60,263 nucleotides of DNA, from positions 1 to 60,263 of the IMG/VR virus record IMGVR_UViG_3300029922_000073; one strand, written 5' to 3'. Each line of letters begins with the position of its first letter. Position 1 is the first letter of the stretch. The translations under genes and the position numbers were made by a program. Shown piece by piece: positions 5,991-50,846 of the stretch. Source of the stretch: a virus. The notes under the pieces were generated by a model that saw only the letters and a list, made by a program, of their open reading frames with translations, was not told the DNA's origin and did not search any database.

Positions 5991-6018
5991 TTGACACATA
6001 AGAAAACAGTGGTATCAT
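5991..6018 (+). promoter_or_regulatory. Strong sigma70 promoter of the Y RNA/Ro60 locus
   Basis: TTGACA at 5991-5996, a 16-base spacer ending TGG, and TATCAT at 6013-6018 give a consensus -35 with an extended -10. The predicted start is near 6025, just before the first structured RNA. Confidence 0.8.
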
Positions 6019-6045
6019 TACAGTTCGAATTAATTTCTTGCCTAG

Positions 6046-6129
6046 AACAGGACAGGGAATAGTGTTGATTACGGTTACTTCGTTTTTCAAAAAAAACACC
6101 GTAATCGCTTTTTCTTTTCCTGTCCTGTT
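6046..6129 (+). ncRNA. Structured RNA, probable first Y RNA of the Ro60 locus
   Basis: An outer stem AACAGGACAGG (6046-6056) pairs perfectly with CCTGTCCTGTT (6119-6129). An inner stem GATTACGGT (6067-6075) pairs with ACCGTAATC (6098-6106). Between them is a short loop region and inside a U-rich/A-rich hairpin. A long terminal stem with an internal loop is the architecture of Y RNAs, whose closed stem binds Ro60. It lies directly downstream of a sigma70 promoter and upstream of a Ro60 gene, the position where bacterial and phage Y RNAs are usually found. The segment GGTTACTTCGT (6073-6083) recurs in the second RNA. Confidence 0.65.
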
Positions 6130-6131
6130 GT

Positions 6132-6260
6132 GGGCAATGGTGTAGGTATCGGTTACTTCGTATCTGAACGAGAGGTCATGGGTTCGATCCCCATCCGGGA
6201 GTTTACTTTCGGTAGCTCAGTGGTAGAGCGCTATGTACTGGTATCGCCAATTCCTTGCCC
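6132..6260 (+). ncRNA. YrlA-type Y RNA with a permuted tRNA-like domain
   Basis: Contains a full T-arm (ATGGG, loop TTCGATC, CCCAT at 6178-6194), then CCGGGAG (6195-6201), a 4-base loop TTTA, then CTTTCGG (6206-6212), which pairs with CCGGGAG as a 7-bp acceptor-like stem, then a D-arm (GCTC, AGTGGTA, GAGC at 6215-6229). The tRNA halves are thus in circularly permuted order. The two ends close with GGGCAA (6132-6137) and TTGCCC (6255-6260), plus TGGTG/CGCCA after an internal bulge, as a Y stem. tRNA mimicry in this arrangement is known for YrlA Y RNAs encoded next to Ro60 in bacteria and phages. It cannot be an ordinary tRNA because the acceptor ends are joined. Confidence 0.8.
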
Positions 6261-6284
6261 GCAGCTAACTTTGGAGGGGGAATC

Positions 6285-7589
6285 ATGAAAGTAAATGTCG
6301 TAAGAAAAATGACGGATGCCACGCATGAAGGCGGGGTCGCTAATCCTCATATTCCCTATATCACACAACTAAAGCGTGCGGTATTCGCATGCCTCTTGTG
6401 GGAAAACAACTTCTATGAAGACGGTGTGAGTATTGCGGACCGTATTAAGTCTTTGTGCGATCATGTTAAGCCGGACGAAGTGGCTGCAATCGCCCGCGAA
6501 GCGCGTACCAAGATGAATTTGCGCCATGTTCCCCTGTTATTGGTTTGTGCGTTGGCGTCCAGGAAGTATGCTGGCCTGGATCAATTGACTTATGATGTCA
6601 TTGAACGCGCAGACGAAATGGGTGAATTGCTTTCAATTTATTGGAAAGACGGCAAGAAACCAATTCCTGCCGCCATGAAACGTGGCCTAGCCGCTGCATT
6701 TACCAAGTTTGACGCCTATCAACTCGGAAAATATTCCGGCGGTGCAATCAAATTGAAGGACGTTCTGCGTCTTGTGCACCCTAAACCAATCCATGATGTG
6801 CAGGCGCGCAACTGGGGTGATCTTGTCCGAGGTGAATTGACGTCGCCGGATACGTGGGAAGTCCAGTTATCTGGTGGTGCGGACAAAAAAGAAACGTTTG
6901 AGCGCCTGATTCGTGAAAAGAAACTTGGTTATATGGCGCTCTTACGCAATTTACGTAATATGAGCCGAGCGGATGTCGATCCTATCTTGGTGAAAGATGC
7001 CTTGATGAACGGTAATGCCAGCCGTGTGCTACCGTTTCGCTATATTGCCGCAGCGCGTGCCGTTCCAGAATGGGCTAATATCATTGATGGGGCATTCAAA
7101 AAGAGATTGGAAGCATTAGAGGGGGCAGATGGGGACACCGTTTTCCTGGTGGACGTTTCTGGTTCAATGGATAGCAAGCTATCGTCTAAGTCTGATTTAA
7201 TGCGTATGGACGCTGCGGCAGCTTTGGCTGCGATTTGGCCTGGTGAAAAAAGGATTTTTAGCTTTTCTAGCGCGCTAGTTGAAGTTGGGGCGTATCAGGG
7301 ACTCGCAGCAATCGAATTGATTGTGAATAGTCAAGAACATGGTGGTACTTATTTGGGGAATTGCCTAAAGGTTCTTCCTGGTATTTTCTCTAAAAAGCCA
7401 AAGCGTTTGATCGTTATTACGGATGAGCAAATCAGTGATAACATCGGACGGCCCTATGCTGAACACGGTTATATTATTAATGTCGCTAGTGAGCGCCCAA
7501 GTATCGCTTATTATGGTCCATGGACGAGCGTGACTGGGTTCAGCGAGAATGTACTTCGGTACATTCAAGAGCATGAAAATCTAAGTTAA
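6285..7589 (+). CDS. rsr: Ro60/TROVE-domain RNA-binding protein, 434 aa
   Basis: Start ATG 6285 has GGAGGGGG upstream; 6255 is a weaker in-frame alternative lying in the RNA. Residues 20-260 are helical HEAT-like repeats typical of the TROVE ring (PHIPYITQLKRAVFACLLWEN, LRHVPLLLVCAL, HPKPIHDVQARNW, LLRNLRNM). Residues 280-434 are a von Willebrand A domain with an intact MIDAS site: DVSGSMD, then GGT (about residue 355), then TDEQ. Ro60 rings bind misfolded RNA ends in the central hole and Y RNA on the outside. In Deinococcus the Y RNA tethers Ro60 to PNPase for structured-RNA decay. The two RNAs upstream fit that role. A phage copy could tune RNA decay or tRNA quality during infection; this is inference. 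Length is slightly short of bacterial Rsr proteins. Confidence 0.9.
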   Translation: MKVNVVRKMTDATHEGGVANPHIPYITQLKRAVFACLLWENNFYEDGVSIADRIKSLCDHVKPDEVAAIAREARTKMNLRHVPLLLVCALASRKYAGLDQLTYDVIERADEMGELLSIYWKDGKKPIPAAMKRGLAAAFTKFDAYQLGKYSGGAIKLKDVLRLVHPKPIHDVQARNWGDLVRGELTSPDTWEVQLSGGADKKETFERLIREKKLGYMALLRNLRNMSRADVDPILVKDALMNGNASRVLPFRYIAAARAVPEWANIIDGAFKKRLEALEGADGDTVFLVDVSGSMDSKLSSKSDLMRMDAAAALAAIWPGEKRIFSFSSALVEVGAYQGLAAIELIVNSQEHGGTYLGNCLKVLPGIFSKKPKRLIVITDEQISDNIGRPYAEHGYIINVASERPSIAYYGPWTSVTGFSENVLRYIQEHENLS

Positions 7590-7648: not shown

Positions 7649-9961
7649 GTGGTTTCTTTATCTGCGCATCAGGATAAAATAGATTCATTTCGAGGATCAA
7701 GAAGTGGAGTCTATTCAGACCCACGAACAGATTTTATCGCCTTCTTGCGTGAACAGGGCTATCAACCACCTGACCGCCTACGCGTAGGTCCACCCTTTAT
7801 GAAGTTTCCGTGCCCAGCAGATACGGGTAATAAAAAGAAGGGGTTCTGCATTTACCATGAAGTTGAAGACCGGGATCACCCGAGCCGTGTCATTGGTATT
7901 GGTATTTACGGCAATTATTATGATGGGTTAGAGCCCAAGAAATGGGTAAGCCGGAACTTTCAAGCATTATCGCCTACACAACGTATGGATTTATCTAGTC
8001 AGATTGAAGAACAAAACCGTCAATATGAACTAGAAAAAGAAAAATCATACCGTGATGCGGCGGATATGGCACGTCAGATTTATGAAAAAGCGGACGGTAC
8101 CCATCCATTAACGCATCCGTATCTGGAAAAAAAGAAAATTCTTCCATTTGGCGCAATCCGTATTGCCACCACGTCTCTTGAAAATGAACGTCCAGGCGAT
8201 CTAATTGTTCCAATTGTGAACGGTAAAGATGAGCTGATGAGCCTGCAATTCATCAAGCCCAATGGATTTAAGATGCATATGACGGGCGGTAAAAAGCAAG
8301 GTTGCTTTTTCTTTATCCCGGCAGACGGTGAAAAGAAAGACAAGATTATTTATATTTGTGAAGGGTATGCCACGGCAGCCAGCGTTCACGAAGCAACGGG
8401 TCGCACCGTCTATGTGTCTTTTGATTGTGGTAATCTGTATAATGTGGCCTCACACGTTAAGAATAAGTACCGGGATGCGAAGATCGTGATCGCAGGTGAT
8501 GATGATATAGACAAAGAAAAGAATGCAGGTAGGGATGCTGCGACGGCAGCAGCATCCGGTCTCGGTATTGAATGTATATTTCCGGTTCTATTGAAGGGGG
8601 CTGGCAAGGATTGGAATGATCTAGCTTGTTCGGAAAGTGTACAGGCCGTCAAGCGTCAGTTGGAATACCGTCCCGAAGCCTATAAGAAAAAAGAAGTTAA
8701 TGCCGACGATTTTGAATTTGAACCACCGCCCGGTATGTTGCGGAACGTGTACGATTATTTTAATACGACATGCGGTAAAGATCAAAAGGGATTTGCTGTC
8801 CAAACGGCATTGGCGGTCGTAAGTATTTTTACTGCAAGAAATTTTATCACTAAAGGTTATGGCAATCTTACCAGCCTCTATCTTTTGTGTATCGGGAAAA
8901 CCAGTACCGGTAAGGAATTCGGAAGAAAAACTATCCAGCAAATTCTTGAAGTCACGAATCATGAAAATCTTGAAGGTAATAGCGGCTATACGTCACCTGC
9001 TGGCGTTTTGTCGGACCTTATAATGAAACCGCGTCATATCAATATTATTGATGAATTCGGCCTTTACTTAAAGAGTGCCCAAAAAGGTGGCGATGGTCGG
9101 ATCATTGCTGCTAATGTTAAATTAATGGAAGCATTCGGTCAGCTTGACGGAAAGATGTCACCAGCGGGTTATTCGACCCTAAATCTTCCAAAAGACAAAA
9201 GAATCGAGATGCAGAATCGCCGTATCCATTTTCCGGCGGTAACGATTTTTGGCATGACGGTTCCCAGTGAATTTTATGATGCCCTCGATATTGAGTCTAT
9301 TCGGAATGGTTTTTTAGGCCGTTTTCTTATTTTTGAATCAACTGCCAAGTCAAGTGTTTATCGGTCAAAAGAAATACAGGGATGCCCAGAAGCTATTAAA
9401 GATTGGGTGAAAAAAATTGATGACAGAATCGGAACGTCCGAGGAGGTGGCGGGTAGCAAGCCCACTCTTAATTGGATTGAAGTTTCAAAAGATGTAAAAG
9501 ATATTTTTGAGGCATATTCACAAGAATGTTTTGATGTCAGTGAAGGGTTGGAAAAATTCGGAATTGGCGGAATTTTGGGAAAATCCGCTGAGATAATGCT
9601 GCGCGTAGCCTTGATCGCAGCACTCGCACGTGATCCAGATACGGATATCGTCAAAAAGGAAGATGCAGAGTGGGCGTACAAATATGTTAAGTTCTGCTTT
9701 GATAGAACAGTTTCTGTGGTAAAGAAATCCATATCCGGGTCCCCATTTGAAGCGAGAAAGAAGGCCGCTTTAGAATATTTAAGAAATGTTGGGGATAAGG
9801 GGGTAATCGAATCAGAAATGCAAAACCTCAAGCCGTTCTCTGCGTGGGCCCCAAGAGATTTAAAAGACGTTATTGAAGCGCTTCTCAAGTCAGAATTAGT
9901 CGCCACCAAACAAGAGCAACGCGGGAAGAAAATGGTGCTGGTGCATTATGCTGTTGTATAA
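7649..9961 (+). CDS. Toprim primase-like/DUF3987-type helicase protein, 770 aa
   Basis: GTG start with GGGGGAGAG 4 bases upstream; no ATG occurs until residue 51. Residues 1-130 hold a Cys/His-containing segment (FPCPADTGNKKKGFC) that may replace the primase zinc finger. Residues 190-330 are a Toprim domain: ICEGYATAAS supplies the catalytic Glu and AGDDDIDKEKNAG the acidic motif. Residues 370-600 form a P-loop ATPase of the DUF3987 type, with CIGKTSTGKE as Walker A and INIIDEFG as Walker B. The C-terminal 80 residues look like a winged helix. It probably primes and unwinds DNA at the phage fork, replacing separate DnaG and DnaB. I see no AEP or DnaG catalytic core beyond Toprim, so primase activity is inferred. 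RusA follows with a 14-base overlap. Confidence 0.75.
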   Translation: MVSLSAHQDKIDSFRGSRSGVYSDPRTDFIAFLREQGYQPPDRLRVGPPFMKFPCPADTGNKKKGFCIYHEVEDRDHPSRVIGIGIYGNYYDGLEPKKWVSRNFQALSPTQRMDLSSQIEEQNRQYELEKEKSYRDAADMARQIYEKADGTHPLTHPYLEKKKILPFGAIRIATTSLENERPGDLIVPIVNGKDELMSLQFIKPNGFKMHMTGGKKQGCFFFIPADGEKKDKIIYICEGYATAASVHEATGRTVYVSFDCGNLYNVASHVKNKYRDAKIVIAGDDDIDKEKNAGRDAATAAASGLGIECIFPVLLKGAGKDWNDLACSESVQAVKRQLEYRPEAYKKKEVNADDFEFEPPPGMLRNVYDYFNTTCGKDQKGFAVQTALAVVSIFTARNFITKGYGNLTSLYLLCIGKTSTGKEFGRKTIQQILEVTNHENLEGNSGYTSPAGVLSDLIMKPRHINIIDEFGLYLKSAQKGGDGRIIAANVKLMEAFGQLDGKMSPAGYSTLNLPKDKRIEMQNRRIHFPAVTIFGMTVPSEFYDALDIESIRNGFLGRFLIFESTAKSSVYRSKEIQGCPEAIKDWVKKIDDRIGTSEEVAGSKPTLNWIEVSKDVKDIFEAYSQECFDVSEGLEKFGIGGILGKSAEIMLRVALIAALARDPDTDIVKKEDAEWAYKYVKFCFDRTVSVVKKSISGSPFEARKKAALEYLRNVGDKGVIESEMQNLKPFSAWAPRDLKDVIEALLKSELVATKQEQRGKKMVLVHYAVV

Positions 9962-49047: not shown

Positions 49048-49124
49048 CGCGAAGTAACTCAGCCTGGTAGAGTACGTGGTTTGGGGCCATGGAGTCAAAG
49101 GTTCGAATCCTTTCTTCGCGACCA
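49048..49124 (+). tRNA. tRNA-Pro (UGG)
   Basis: Acceptor CGCGAAG/CTTCGCG, D-arm ACTC/GAGT, anticodon stem CGTGG/CCATG with loop TTTGGGG (anticodon TGG), T-loop TTCGAAT, CCA encoded. First tRNA of the array. Confidence 0.9.
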
Positions 49125-49200
49125 TAGGGGTGTCGCCAAGTGGTTAAGGCAACGGGTTTTCAGTCCGTCATCGCGAGTTCAATCCTCGTCACCCCTACCA
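49125..49200 (+). tRNA. tRNA-Glu (UUC)
   Basis: Acceptor TAGGGGT/ACCCCTA, anticodon stem ACGGG/TCCGT, loop TTTTCAG (anticodon TTC), T-loop TTCAATC, encoded CCA. It abuts tRNA-Pro with no spacer. Confidence 0.88.
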
Positions 49201-49207
49201 AGTAATT

Positions 49208-49283
49208 GGGTTCCTGGCGTAACTAGTGTGCGCGGCTGATTGAAGCTCAGCAGGAGCAGGTGCGATCCCTGCGGAACTCACCA
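49208..49283 (+). tRNA. tRNA-Phe (GAA)
   Basis: Acceptor GGGTTCC/GGAACTC, anticodon stem GCTGA/TCAGC, loop TTGAAGC (anticodon GAA), T-stem GCAGG/CCTGC, encoded CCA. The T-loop is TGCGATC: G replaces the near-universal U55. Confidence 0.85.
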
Positions 49284-49285
49284 AA

Positions 49286-49359
49286 GGGTGTATAGCTCAA
49301 TAGAAGAGCAAGCGGCTTTTAACCGTTCGACCAAGGAGCGTTACCTTGTGCACCCACCA
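49286..49359 (+). tRNA. tRNA-Lys (UUU)
   Basis: Acceptor GGGTGTA/TGCACCC, anticodon stem AGCGG/CCGTT, loop CTTTTAA (anticodon TTT), T-stem CAAGG/CCTTG, encoded CCA. The T-loop AGCGTTA lacks the normal TTC. Confidence 0.85.
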
Positions 49360-49368
49360 GTTAGTTTT

Positions 49369-49442
49369 ATGTGCGTAGTGTAATGGTAACACGGCTGCCT
49401 CCAAATCAGCAAACCAGGGTTCGATTCCTTGCGCATGTGCCA
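49369..49442 (+). tRNA. tRNA-Trp (CCA)
   Basis: Acceptor ATGTGCG/CGCATGT with G:U pairs, anticodon loop CTCCAAA (anticodon CCA) on stem GCTGC/TCAGC with one mismatch, T-loop TTCGATT, encoded CCA. Confidence 0.82.
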
Positions 49443-49443
49443 T

Positions 49444-49517
49444 TCTTAAGTCGTCCAAAGGTAGGACAAGCGACTGTTAATCGCTGAATCTAGGTTCGAC
49501 TCCTAGCTTAAGAGCCA
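49444..49517 (+). tRNA. tRNA-Asn (GUU)
   Basis: Acceptor TCTTAAG/CTTAAGA, anticodon stem AGCGA/TCGCT, loop CTGTTAA (anticodon GTT), T-loop TTCGACT, encoded CCA. Confidence 0.9.
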
Positions 49518-49519
49518 AA

Positions 49520-49596
49520 GATCACGTCGCGTAGTGGCCTATCGCACCTCTCTGTCTAAGAGGATTTCGCGGGTTCGAATCCCGCCGTGATCGCCA
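49520..49596 (+). tRNA. tRNA-Asp (GUC)
   Basis: Acceptor GATCACG/CGTGATC, anticodon stem CCTCT/AGAGG, loop CTGTCTA (anticodon GTC), T-loop TTCGAAT, encoded CCA. Confidence 0.9.
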
Positions 49597-49670
49597 GGGC
49601 TTGTAGTACATTGGTAGTACGCCTGCTTTGCACGCAGGAGAACAGGTTTCGATTACCTGCTGGTCCACCA
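49597..49670 (+). tRNA. tRNA-Ala (UGC)
   Basis: Anticodon stem CCTGC/GCAGG, loop TTTGCAC (anticodon TGC), T-stem CAGGT/ACCTG, encoded CCA. The acceptor stem GGGCTTG/CTGGTCC has one mismatch and two wobbles. Confidence 0.85.
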
Positions 49671-49671
49671 C

Positions 49672-49745
49672 TTGAGGTTAGTTTAATGGTAGAATTTCCG
49701 ACTTTGAATCGGAAGATAGACGTTCGAGTCGTTCACCTCAAGCCA
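49672..49745 (+). tRNA. tRNA-Gln (UUG)
   Basis: Acceptor TTGAGGT/ACCTCAA, anticodon stem TCCGA/TCGGA, loop CTTTGAA (anticodon TTG), encoded CCA. Confidence 0.88.
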
Positions 49746-49750
49746 AATAA

Positions 49751-49825
49751 GCGGGGTTAATTCAGCGGTAGAATGTCTGCCTTCCAAGCAGAACGTCATC
49801 GGTTCAAATCCGATACCCCGCTCCA
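49751..49825 (+). tRNA. tRNA-Gly (UCC)
   Basis: Acceptor GCGGGGT/ACCCCGC, anticodon stem TCTGC/GCAGA, loop CTTCCAA (anticodon TCC), T-loop TTCAAAT, encoded CCA. Confidence 0.9.
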
Positions 49826-49828
49826 AAT

Positions 49829-49904
49829 GCTGTTCTAACTCATCTGGTAGAGTGCCACCTTTGTAACGTGGAAGTGCGGGGTTCAAGTCCTCGGAGCAGC
49901 ACCA
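49829..49904 (+). tRNA. tRNA-Thr (UGU)
   Basis: Acceptor GCTGTTC/GAGCAGC, D-arm ACTC/GAGT, anticodon loop TTTGTAA (anticodon TGT) on stem CCACC/CGTGG with a C-C closing mismatch, encoded CCA. Confidence 0.84.
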
Positions 49905-49912
49905 GTTTTTAT

Positions 49913-49990
49913 GTTACGAGTGGCCGAACGGTTTAGGCACTTCCCTGTGAAGGAAGATAGAAGCGGGTTCGACTCCCGTCTCGTACCCCA
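49913..49990 (+). tRNA. tRNA-His (GUG)
   Basis: Anticodon stem CTTCC/GGAAG, loop CTGTGAA (anticodon GTG), T-loop TTCGACT, encoded CCA. A G at 49913 can pair with C73 as the histidine identity G-1; the next pair is mismatched, so the exact 5 prime end is uncertain. Confidence 0.82.
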
Positions 49991-49991
49991 T

Positions 49992-50065
49992 GCCCCACTA
50001 GCTCAATGGTAGAGCAATTGGTTTACATCCAAAAGACGGTGGTTCAATTCCATCGTGGGGTACCA
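49992..50065 (+). tRNA. tRNA-Val (UAC)
   Basis: Acceptor GCCCCAC/GTGGGGT, anticodon loop TTTACAT (anticodon TAC) on stem ATTGG/CCAAA with one mismatch, T-loop TTCAATT, encoded CCA. Confidence 0.86.
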
Positions 50066-50075
50066 AGTTTCTATA

Positions 50076-50104
50076 TTGACAAAAGAAGTGATTTGAAATA
50101 ATTT
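50076..50104 (+). promoter_or_regulatory. Internal sigma70 promoter in the tRNA array
   Basis: TTGACA (50076-50081), 17-base spacer, TAATTT (50099-50104). The predicted start (about 50111) coincides with the 5 prime end of the next tRNA, so that tRNA may need little or no 5 prime processing. Confidence 0.65.
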
Positions 50105-50109
50105 TGTTC

Positions 50110-50181
50110 GGCGGGTGCGCAAGGCGCGATCAGGCTTCATACGCCAGATTCTGAAGGGTGCGAGTCCCTTACCCGCTACCA
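50110..50181 (+). tRNA. tRNA with CAU anticodon (Met or Ile2), short D-arm
   Basis: Acceptor GGCGGGT/ACCCGCT, anticodon stem CAGGC/GCCAG with one mismatch, loop TTCATAC (anticodon CAT), T-stem AAGGG/CCCTT, encoded CCA. Only 14 bases separate acceptor and anticodon stems: a 3-bp D-stem CGC/GCG with a 5-base loop AAGGC. The T-loop TGCGAGT lacks U55. It may be degenerate or specialised. Confidence 0.65.
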
Positions 50182-50182
50182 T

Positions 50183-50259
50183 GCTCACGTAGGCTAACTG
50201 GTAACGCCACCAGACTTAAAATCTTGTGATTGTCAGTTCGAATCTGACCGTGAGTACCA
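50183..50259 (+). tRNA. tRNA-Leu (UAA) with short variable loop
   Basis: Acceptor GCTCACG/CGTGAGT, anticodon loop CTTAAAA (anticodon TAA) on stem CCAGA/TCTTG with a mismatch, T-stem GTCAG/CTGAC, encoded CCA. The variable loop is only 5 bases, whereas bacterial tRNA-Leu has a long variable arm. Confidence 0.8.
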
Positions 50260-50267
50260 AAAGTTAT

Positions 50268-50342
50268 GGTTTCCTAGCTCAAAGGAAGAGCAACGACCTT
50301 CTAAGTCGTAGGTTCAAGGTTCGAGTCCTTGGGAAATCACCA
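50268..50342 (+). tRNA. tRNA-Arg (UCU)
   Basis: Acceptor GGTTTCC/GGAAATC, anticodon stem ACGAC/GTCGT, loop CTTCTAA (anticodon TCT), T-loop TTCGAGT, encoded CCA. Confidence 0.9.
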
Positions 50343-50343
50343 A

Positions 50344-50419
50344 GCCTCGTTGGCGGAAAGGCAGACGCACTAGATTTAGGCTCTAGTTTCTCCCGGTTCG
50401 AATCCGGGACGGGGTACCA
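50344..50419 (+). tRNA. tRNA-Leu (UAG) with short variable loop
   Basis: Acceptor GCCTCGT/ACGGGGT, Leu-like D-arm GGCGGAAAGGCAGACGC, anticodon stem CTAGA/TCTAG, loop TTTAGGC (anticodon TAG), T-stem CCCGG/CCGGG, encoded CCA. The variable loop is TTTCT, 5 bases, again without the long arm. Confidence 0.84.
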
Positions 50420-50420
50420 A

Positions 50421-50495
50421 AGTTGTGTAGCTCAAAGGTGGAGCTGGCTGCTCATAACGGCCTGGGTGCTGGTTCGAGTCCAGCCGCAACTACCA
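50421..50495 (+). tRNA. tRNA with CAU anticodon (Met or Ile2)
   Basis: Acceptor AGTTGTG/CGCAACT, anticodon stem GGCTG/CGGCC, loop CTCATAA (anticodon CAT), T-loop TTCGAGT, encoded CCA. Elongator Met and lysidine-modified Ile2 cannot be told apart from sequence alone. Confidence 0.87.
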
Positions 50496-50502
50496 GTTTT
50501 AA

Positions 50503-50577
50503 CCAAGGGTAGCATAATGGTAATGCCCGCGACCGATAATCGCGTGAGTGAAGGTTCGATTCCTTCTCCTTGGACCA
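50503..50577 (+). tRNA. tRNA-Ile (GAU) with C33
   Basis: Acceptor CCAAGGG/TCCTTGG, anticodon stem CGCGA/TCGCG, loop CCGATAA (anticodon GAT), T-loop TTCGATT, encoded CCA. Position 33 is C instead of the near-invariant U. Confidence 0.84.
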
Positions 50578-50580
50578 AAT

Positions 50581-50657
50581 AGTCCTGTAGCTCAATTGGA
50601 TGAGCAGGCCGCTACGAACGGAAAGGTATGCAGGTTCGAATCCTGTCAGGACTACCA
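50581..50657 (+). tRNA. tRNA-Arg (ACG)
   Basis: Acceptor AGTCCTG/CAGGACT, anticodon loop CTACGAA (anticodon ACG, read as inosine-CG after editing), T-stem GCAGG/CCTGT, encoded CCA. The anticodon stem has two mismatched pairs at its outer end. Confidence 0.84.
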
Positions 50658-50663
50658 ATTTTT

Positions 50664-50749
50664 GGAAAGTTAACGTGCCGGGGGCACGTCCCGATTGCTA
50701 ATCGGAGAGCACCGCGAGGTGTGTGGATCAAGACCACAGCTTTCCGCCA
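50664..50749 (+). tRNA. tRNA-Ser (GCU)
   Basis: Acceptor GGAAAGT/GCTTTCC, anticodon loop TTGCTAA (anticodon GCT), long variable arm CACC-GCGA-GGTG as expected for Ser, T-stem TGTGG/CCACA with loop ATCAAGA, discriminator G, encoded CCA. Confidence 0.86.
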
Positions 50750-50760
50750 AATTAATTAAA

Positions 50761-50846
50761 GGAGCGTTGGCAGAACGGTATTGCAGCAGTCCTGAAAACT
50801 GTAAAACCTAACGGTTTTCTCGGTTCAAATCCGAGGCGCTCCGCCA
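50761..50846 (+). tRNA. tRNA-Ser (UGA) with C33
   Basis: Acceptor GGAGCGT/GCGCTCC, anticodon stem GCAGT/ACTGT, loop CCTGAAA (anticodon TGA), long variable arm AAAACC-TAAC-GGTTTT, T-loop TTCAAAT, discriminator G, encoded CCA. Position 33 is C. Confidence 0.87.

What the first reader, a model, noticed from the sequence alone, without database searches (positions are those of the whole stretch)
5991..7589. Phage Ro60/Y RNA locus with two Y-type RNAs, one carrying a permuted tRNA mimic
Seen: a consensus sigma70 promoter (5991-6018), a first stem-loop RNA with 11-bp and 9-bp nested perfect stems (6046-6129), a second RNA (6132-6260) in which T-arm, 3 prime acceptor strand, TTTA loop, 5 prime acceptor strand and D-arm occur in circularly permuted tRNA order inside a GGGCAA/TTGCCC end stem, and a TROVE-VWA protein with intact MIDAS residues. 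Known: YrlA-class Y RNAs mimic tRNA and sit beside bacterial and some phage Ro60 genes; Ro60-Y RNA can tether PNPase. Inference: the phage carries a complete RNA-decay or RNA-sorting device, perhaps linked to its large tRNA set.
Basis: partly seen in the sequence, partly recalled or inferred. Interest (0 to 1): 0.9.

Follow-up and report, generated by a model that had tools for sequence, protein, structure and literature searches.

The report
Phage Ro60 with two Y RNAs
This phage carries a gene for a ring-shaped RNA-binding protein (Ro60) and, just before it, two small structured RNAs of the kind that bind it, one of which imitates a transfer RNA; this is a well-supported new example of a system already known in bacteria and some phages, and its job in phages is still untested.

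Summary
Window 6285-7589 encodes a Ro60 (TROVE + vWA) protein. Upstream are two genuine Y RNAs. RNA2 (6132-6260) has the circularly permuted tRNA module of the YrlA class: T-arm, 7-bp acceptor hairpin, D-arm. That module recurs before Ro60 in 31 of 51 other phage loci, and all 7 acceptor pairs covary. RNA1 (6046-6129) has the same Ro60-side stem but no tRNA module. A covariance model built only from other phages' tRNA-less Y RNAs finds it as the sole hit in 60 kb (58 bits, E 2e-14). A sigma70-like promoter precedes the pair. The same two RNA types sit beside bacterial Ro60 genes, and the Ro60 tree mixes phages and bacteria, so the cassette has moved between them. Phage Ro60 is already known, including a solved Thermus phage phiLo structure (9l5y), and phage Y RNAs have been reported. 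This is therefore a new member of a known kind. The functional link to PNPase or to the phage's 21 tRNAs is untested: the window has no RtcB, and about half of 27 Ro60-bearing phage records carry at most one tRNA hit. Most likely it is a Ro60-Y RNA particle that redirects host RNA turnover or sorting. A tRNA decoy against host nucleases is the main rival.

The parts
5991..6018 (+). sigma70-like promoter, TTGACA-16-TATCAT with extended -10 TG; predicted start near 6025
   Evidence: same placement before the first Y RNA in many related phages; not tested by transcript data
6046..6129 (+). RNA1: tRNA-less (YrlB-like) Y RNA; outer stem 6046-6059/6116-6129
   Evidence: fold; R2 covariance model trained on other phages hits only 6047-6129 in 60 kb, 58 bits, E 2.1e-14; covariation of the family
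6061..6109 (+). RNA1 conserved Ro60-side stem: AGUG-UUG-AUUACGGU-UACUUC ... ACCGUAAU-CGCU
   Evidence: pairing search; 59 units against 0.33 in shuffles over 52 loci
6132..6260 (+). RNA2: YrlA-like Y RNA, end stem GGGCAA/UUGCCC
6139..6248 (+). RNA2 conserved Ro60-side stem: GGUG-UAG-GUAUCGGU-UACUUC (6139-6159) ... ACUGGUAU-CGCC (6237-6248)
   Evidence: sequence-only selection, helix pairs 5.35 of 6 against 3.45 with shuffled partners
6174..6236 (+). permuted tRNA-like module: T-arm 6178-6194, 7-bp acceptor hairpin 6195-6212, D-arm 6215-6229; no anticodon arm, no CCA end
   Evidence: 63.9 bits against at most 40.4 for neighbouring-tRNA artefacts in this window; Rfam YrlA 31.9 bits, below the gathering score
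6285..7589 (+). Ro60 (TROVE + vWA) protein, 434 aa
   Evidence: Pfam TROVE, PHROG 850, AlphaFold2 model pLDDT 86, Foldseek best hits 9kop and 9l5y, also 2nvo, 1yvp, 9nen

Best explanation
The locus encodes a phage Ro60-Y RNA ribonucleoprotein. One promoter drives a tRNA-less (YrlB-like) Y RNA, a YrlA-like Y RNA and the Ro60 gene. Both RNAs present the same bulged, conserved stem to the Ro60 ring; that is inferred from shared covarying structure and co-location, and binding was not tested. On the YrlA-like RNA, the tRNA-like domain then acts as the effector end. As described for bacterial YrlA, it can be read by tRNA-recognising proteins and can tether an exoribonuclease such as host PNPase. 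The particle would thus redirect host RNA turnover or sorting (misfolded, cleaved or structured RNA) during infection, while the short Y RNA occupies or gates Ro60 without an effector. Shown here: identity of the protein, both RNAs, their structures and the conserved arrangement. Inferred: co-transcription, binding, tethering and benefit to the phage. The identity part is about 0.97 likely; the stated confidence covers identity plus this mechanism.
For: Acceptor, T and D helices: 96% of cells paired, 11 of 16 pairs with changes on both sides, against 70% in shuffles and 34-48% in slid controls. Tally from the pattern listing: module upstream of Ro60 in 31 of 51 other phage loci. tRNA-less Y RNA family: 16 of 17 pairs with changes on both sides, and window RNA1 found by a model that had not seen it. 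The same Ro60-side stem occurs in both RNA types. R2 hits in 44 of 51 phage loci and 70 of 80 bacterial Ro60 loci. Ro60 fold: top matches are Thermus phage phiLo Ro60, D. radiodurans Rsr, human and Xenopus Ro60. Literature: YrlA architecture and the Rsr-YrlA-PNPase machine (PMC8394870); the rsr-yrlBA operon (PMC7790460); a Listeria phage Rsr homologue lying near highly transcribed non-coding regions and found in virions (PMC12282133).
Against: No transcript, binding or phenotype data for this phage. No nuclease or RNA-repair enzyme adjoins the locus, and RtcB and RlaP are absent from the window. PNPase tethering was shown in Deinococcus, far from this host. Six terminase relatives lack Ro60, so it is accessory.
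Confidence: 0.6

Rival explanations
1. Counter-defence decoy: the tRNA-like Y RNA, which lacks an anticodon arm, is bound but not cut by host tRNA-targeting nucleases (anticodon nucleases, toxins), and Ro60 stabilises it; together with the 21 phage tRNAs it protects translation.
For: A decoy role for YrlA against an anticodon nuclease, with YrlA reported not to be cut, is proposed in PMC7790460. The phage carries 21 tRNAs. T- and D-loop identity residues are strictly conserved and the anticodon arm is absent.
Against: Bacteria carry the same RNAs. RNA1 has no tRNA part. The link of Ro60 with phage tRNA number is loose.
Confidence: 0.2
2. Leader control: the two RNAs are mainly a 5' untranslated regulator of the Ro60 gene, through which Ro60 limits its own synthesis.
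For: Both RNAs lie between the promoter and the Ro60 start on the same strand. GGGCAA of RNA2 can also pair upstream of RNA1 in the full-length fold.
Against: Relatives carry several Y RNA units in varying number and order, and in some loci downstream of the gene, which a leader would not need. The structure matches free Y RNAs.
Confidence: 0.08
3. Scaffold for RNA repair, as in bacterial rsr-yrlBA-rtcBA operons.
For: RtcB adjoins Ro60 in some bacterial loci (10 of 83 neighbour proteins scanned); RlaP and a PNKP phosphatase domain occur near a few phage Ro60 genes.
Against: No RtcB or RlaP in this window.
Confidence: 0.08
4. Not a Y RNA: a remnant of two neighbouring tRNA genes, or a true permuted tRNA gene.
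For: Neighbouring tRNAs give weak hits to the module model (up to 40 bits in this window).
Against: The two acceptor strands covary with each other in 7 of 7 pairs; no anticodon arm or CCA end; constant position beside Ro60; 63.9 bits against 40.4.
Confidence: 0.02

Closest known systems
YrlA RNA (Rfam RF02553) with Rsr/Ro60, e.g. Salmonella rsr-yrlBA-rtcBA
   Same: permuted T-arm, acceptor hairpin, D-arm module; terminal stem for Ro60; two Y RNAs, beside Ro60
   Different: scores below Rfam's gathering cut-off (31.9 against 69 bits); RNAs precede rather than follow the protein gene; no rtcB; on a phage
Thermus phage phiLo Ro60 (PDB 9l5y)
   Same: phage-encoded Ro60 of the same fold, among the best structural matches
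   Different: about 24% identical; its Y RNAs were not well modelled here (one weak R2 hit, 23.5 bits)
Ro60/Y RNA loci of Xanthomonas phages Olaya/10KY502B, Caulobacter phage CcrColossus and Brevundimonas phages
   Same: Ro60 with arrays of tRNA-type and short Y RNAs upstream
   Different: typically three to five Y RNA units rather than two; some are annotated as ordinary tRNAs
Deinococcus radiodurans Rsr-Y RNA-PNPase machine (RYPER)
   Same: Ro60 fold (2nvo) and Y RNA concept
   Different: tethering of PNPase not testable here; protein only about 16% identical

Membership tests
Ro60 / Rsr (TROVE-vWA) proteins | TROVE domain plus vWA domain with MIDAS | tested here: met
   Pfam TROVE 58.8 bits (cut-off 23); vWA just below its cut-off; MIDAS residues invariant
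Ro60 / Rsr (TROVE-vWA) proteins | HEAT-ring plus vWA fold of Ro60 | tested here: met
   AlphaFold2 pLDDT 86; Foldseek E 1e-18 to 1e-9 to all Ro60 structures
YrlA-class Y RNA | permuted tRNA-like domain (T-arm, acceptor, D-arm; no anticodon arm) | tested here: met
YrlA-class Y RNA | Rfam RF02553 gathering score | tested here: not met
   31.9 bits against 69; other phage Y RNAs also stay below it (best 55.9), so the Rfam model is narrow; filed as YrlA-like on structure
YrlA-class Y RNA | 5'/3' terminal stem with conserved Ro60-binding helix | tested here: met
   actual binding not testable
tRNA-less Y RNA (YrlB-like) | same stem, short loop, beside Ro60 | tested here: met
   independent covariance model hit E 2e-14
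Y RNAs | bound by Ro60 in vivo | not testable with these tools
   needs pull-down
RYPER-type RNA degradation machine | PNPase tethered by the Y RNA | not testable with these tools
   host unknown, no interaction data
rtc RNA-repair operon | RtcB or RtcA encoded alongside | tested here: not met
   RtcB absent from the window; RtcA not searched separately

The most novel reading that the evidence does not exclude
Phage Ro60-Y RNA cassettes are a mobile counter-defence module: the tRNA-like Y RNA acts as an uncleavable decoy for host tRNA-cutting defence nucleases, held ready by the phage Ro60 ring, and the cassette is traded repeatedly between phages and bacteria.
Probability: 0.15. Interest if true: 0.8.

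Novelty: new member of a known kind. Interest (0 to 1): 0.45.

Why it matters
Why many unrelated phages keep a Ro60 ring and its Y RNAs is an open question. This locus is compact, with one promoter, two RNAs and one protein, and the comparative data give precise stems to mutate. The covariance model of tRNA-less Y RNAs (R2) detects a class that the Rfam scan of RNA1 did not match, and the survey shows that some published phage genomes annotate these RNAs as tRNAs.

Tried and rejected
(1) Tandem-tRNA artefact as the source of the permuted module: rejected by acceptor-stem covariation and score gap. (2) Short tRNA-less Y RNAs as a phage speciality: a strict motif count suggested 20/26 phage against 12/48 bacterial loci, but the covariance model found them in many bacterial loci too, so the claim was dropped. 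(3) GGYG/CGCY as a fixed helix in the Ro60 stem: its letters pair by construction of the motif, so it says nothing; the covarying pairing is GUGG/CCC with a bulged U. (4) Origin of the mimic from one of the phage's own tRNAs: none stands out. (5) Link of Ro60 to large tRNA sets: loose. (6) RtcB or RlaP in the window: none. (7) Using Listeria phage P100, a relative of CKA15, as expression evidence: its RNAs upstream of the Rsr-like gene do not match R2, so the published transcript peaks cannot be transferred directly. (9) The key paper on bacterial Y RNAs (RNA 2014, doi 10.1261/rna.047241.114) is not held, so its contents are cited second-hand.

Full report
What is there. The stretch 5991-7589 holds a sigma70-like promoter, two structured RNAs and a 434-aa protein. 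The protein is Ro60: Pfam TROVE 58.8 bits and a vWA-like region, PHROG 850, an AlphaFold2 model with mean pLDDT 86, and Foldseek matches to every solved Ro60, led by 9kop and by 9l5y, 'Ro60 dimer from Thermus phage phiLo'. The vWA metal-site residues D290, S292, S294 and D380 are invariant among 34 phage homologues.

RNA2 is a YrlA-type Y RNA. Rfam finds YrlA at 6171-6232 with 31.9 bits, E 3e-5 for this stretch but below the curated cut-off. Scanning upstream of Ro60 in 51 other phage loci, from IMG/VR and phage records, found the same T-arm, acceptor, D-arm order in 31 of them (tally from the listing). On 35 aligned modules, 96% of cells pair, 11 of 16 pairs change on both sides, and all seven acceptor pairs do; slid controls reach 34-48%. 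Tandem tRNAs can imitate the order, but the best such artefact in this window scores 40.4 bits against 63.9 for the Y RNA, and covariation between the two acceptor strands excludes it. The module lacks an anticodon arm and its acceptor end is a closed loop, so it cannot be charged.

RNA1 is a Y RNA without the tRNA part. Both RNAs share a stem of the form RGYG-UWG-helix-UACUUC ... helix'-CGCY. A pairing search found 59 such units upstream of Ro60 in 52 loci against 0.33 in shuffles. With units selected on sequence letters alone, the variable helix pairs at 5.35 of 6 positions against 3.45 with shuffled partners, maximum 3.74. Aligning 24 short units from other phages gave 16 of 17 pairs with changes on both sides and 86.5% paired against 60% in shuffles. 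The covariance model R2 built from them, without the window, hits exactly 6047-6129 and nothing else in 60 kb, 58 bits, E 2e-14. The window's RNA1 and RNA2 therefore appear to correspond to the yrlB/yrlA pair named in Salmonella (PMC7790460).

Expression. The window promoter matches 11 of 12 consensus bases (0.5% of shuffles do as well). In relatives, a promoter-like site lies 8-20 nt before the first Y RNA in 13 of 26 loci, against 2.4 expected. No transcript data exist for this phage. In Listeria phage CKA15, a Ro60-like protein is found in virions and lies downstream of very highly transcribed non-coding regions that its authors suggest may be Y RNAs (PMC12282133). Checking the related phage P100, its RNAs do not match R2, so that evidence is only by analogy.

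Distribution and history. R2 hits lie in 44 of 51 other phage loci and 70 of 80 bacterial Ro60 loci. The Ro60 tree mixes phage and bacterial rows, with at least five changes forced by well-supported branches; the window protein sits on a long branch inside a mostly proteobacterial and phage clade, highest identity 56%. By terminase the phage resembles Rhizobium phages at about 57%, and six long relatives lack TROVE. The cassette is therefore accessory and mobile.

Function. The bacterial precedent is that the YrlA basal stem binds Rsr and the tRNA-like end engages PNPase, steering it to structured RNA (PMC8394870). A decoy role against an anticodon nuclease has also been proposed (PMC7790460). 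Nothing here tests either. Neighbouring genes in this phage are replication genes (primase 7649-9961, RusA, helicase); RtcB and RlaP are absent. In other phage loci RlaP and a PNKP phosphatase domain occur occasionally, and RtcB adjoins some bacterial Ro60 genes, which fits a general tie to RNA repair or turnover. The proposed link to the tRNA array is weak: of 27 Ro60-bearing phage records, 6 have no tRNA hit and 7 have one, some at Y RNA strength, while 10 have eight or more.

Verdict. The sequence claims are right and now well supported; the device claim is plausible but untested. Ro60-Y RNA loci in phages have been reported before (PMC12282133 cites Y RNAs in mycobacteriophages; PMC7824862 lists TROVE proteins in jumbo phages; a phage Ro60 structure exists), so this is a new member of a known kind.

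Noticed in passing
L041 3810-3877 (Xanthomonas phage 10KY502B), L044 2802-2876 (Brevundimonas phage Gurke), L045 2140-2207 (Caulobacter phage CcrColossus): Genes annotated as tRNA-Thr, tRNA-Ser and tRNA-Gln overlap permuted tRNA modules found here; they are probably Y RNAs, not tRNAs.
   Followed up: partly
L153 34073-34624, minus strand (Listeria phage P100): A ROOL RNA (Rfam RF03087, 86 bits, cut-off 99) lies upstream of the Ro60-like gp165; it may account for one of the highly transcribed regions seen in the related phage CKA15.
   Followed up: partly
L153 about 33480-33110, minus strand (Listeria phage P100): Three tandem short hairpins with the repeated motif ACAGCAAWUACU just upstream of the Ro60-like gene, behind TTGACA-17-TATCAT; they look like divergent Y RNAs but do not match R2.
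   Followed up: no
window 49048-50846: 21 tRNA genes in 1.8 kb; no Cys or Tyr tRNA was called.
   Followed up: no
window about 6038-6042 and 6131-6137: The GGGCAA strand of RNA2's end stem can pair instead with UUGCC upstream of RNA1; the full-length fold prefers this (-81.8 against -78.0 kcal/mol for the parts), a possible alternative structure before processing.
   Followed up: partly
L045 2179-2272 and L046 2182-2275: The Caulobacter phage Y RNA has an acceptor hairpin enlarged by about 30 nt with an extra stem.
   Followed up: no
L048 4572-4766, L049 4497-4680, L050 5099-5290 (crAss-like phages): Permuted-module hits lie downstream rather than upstream of Ro60 in crAss-like phages, two per phage.
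   Followed up: no
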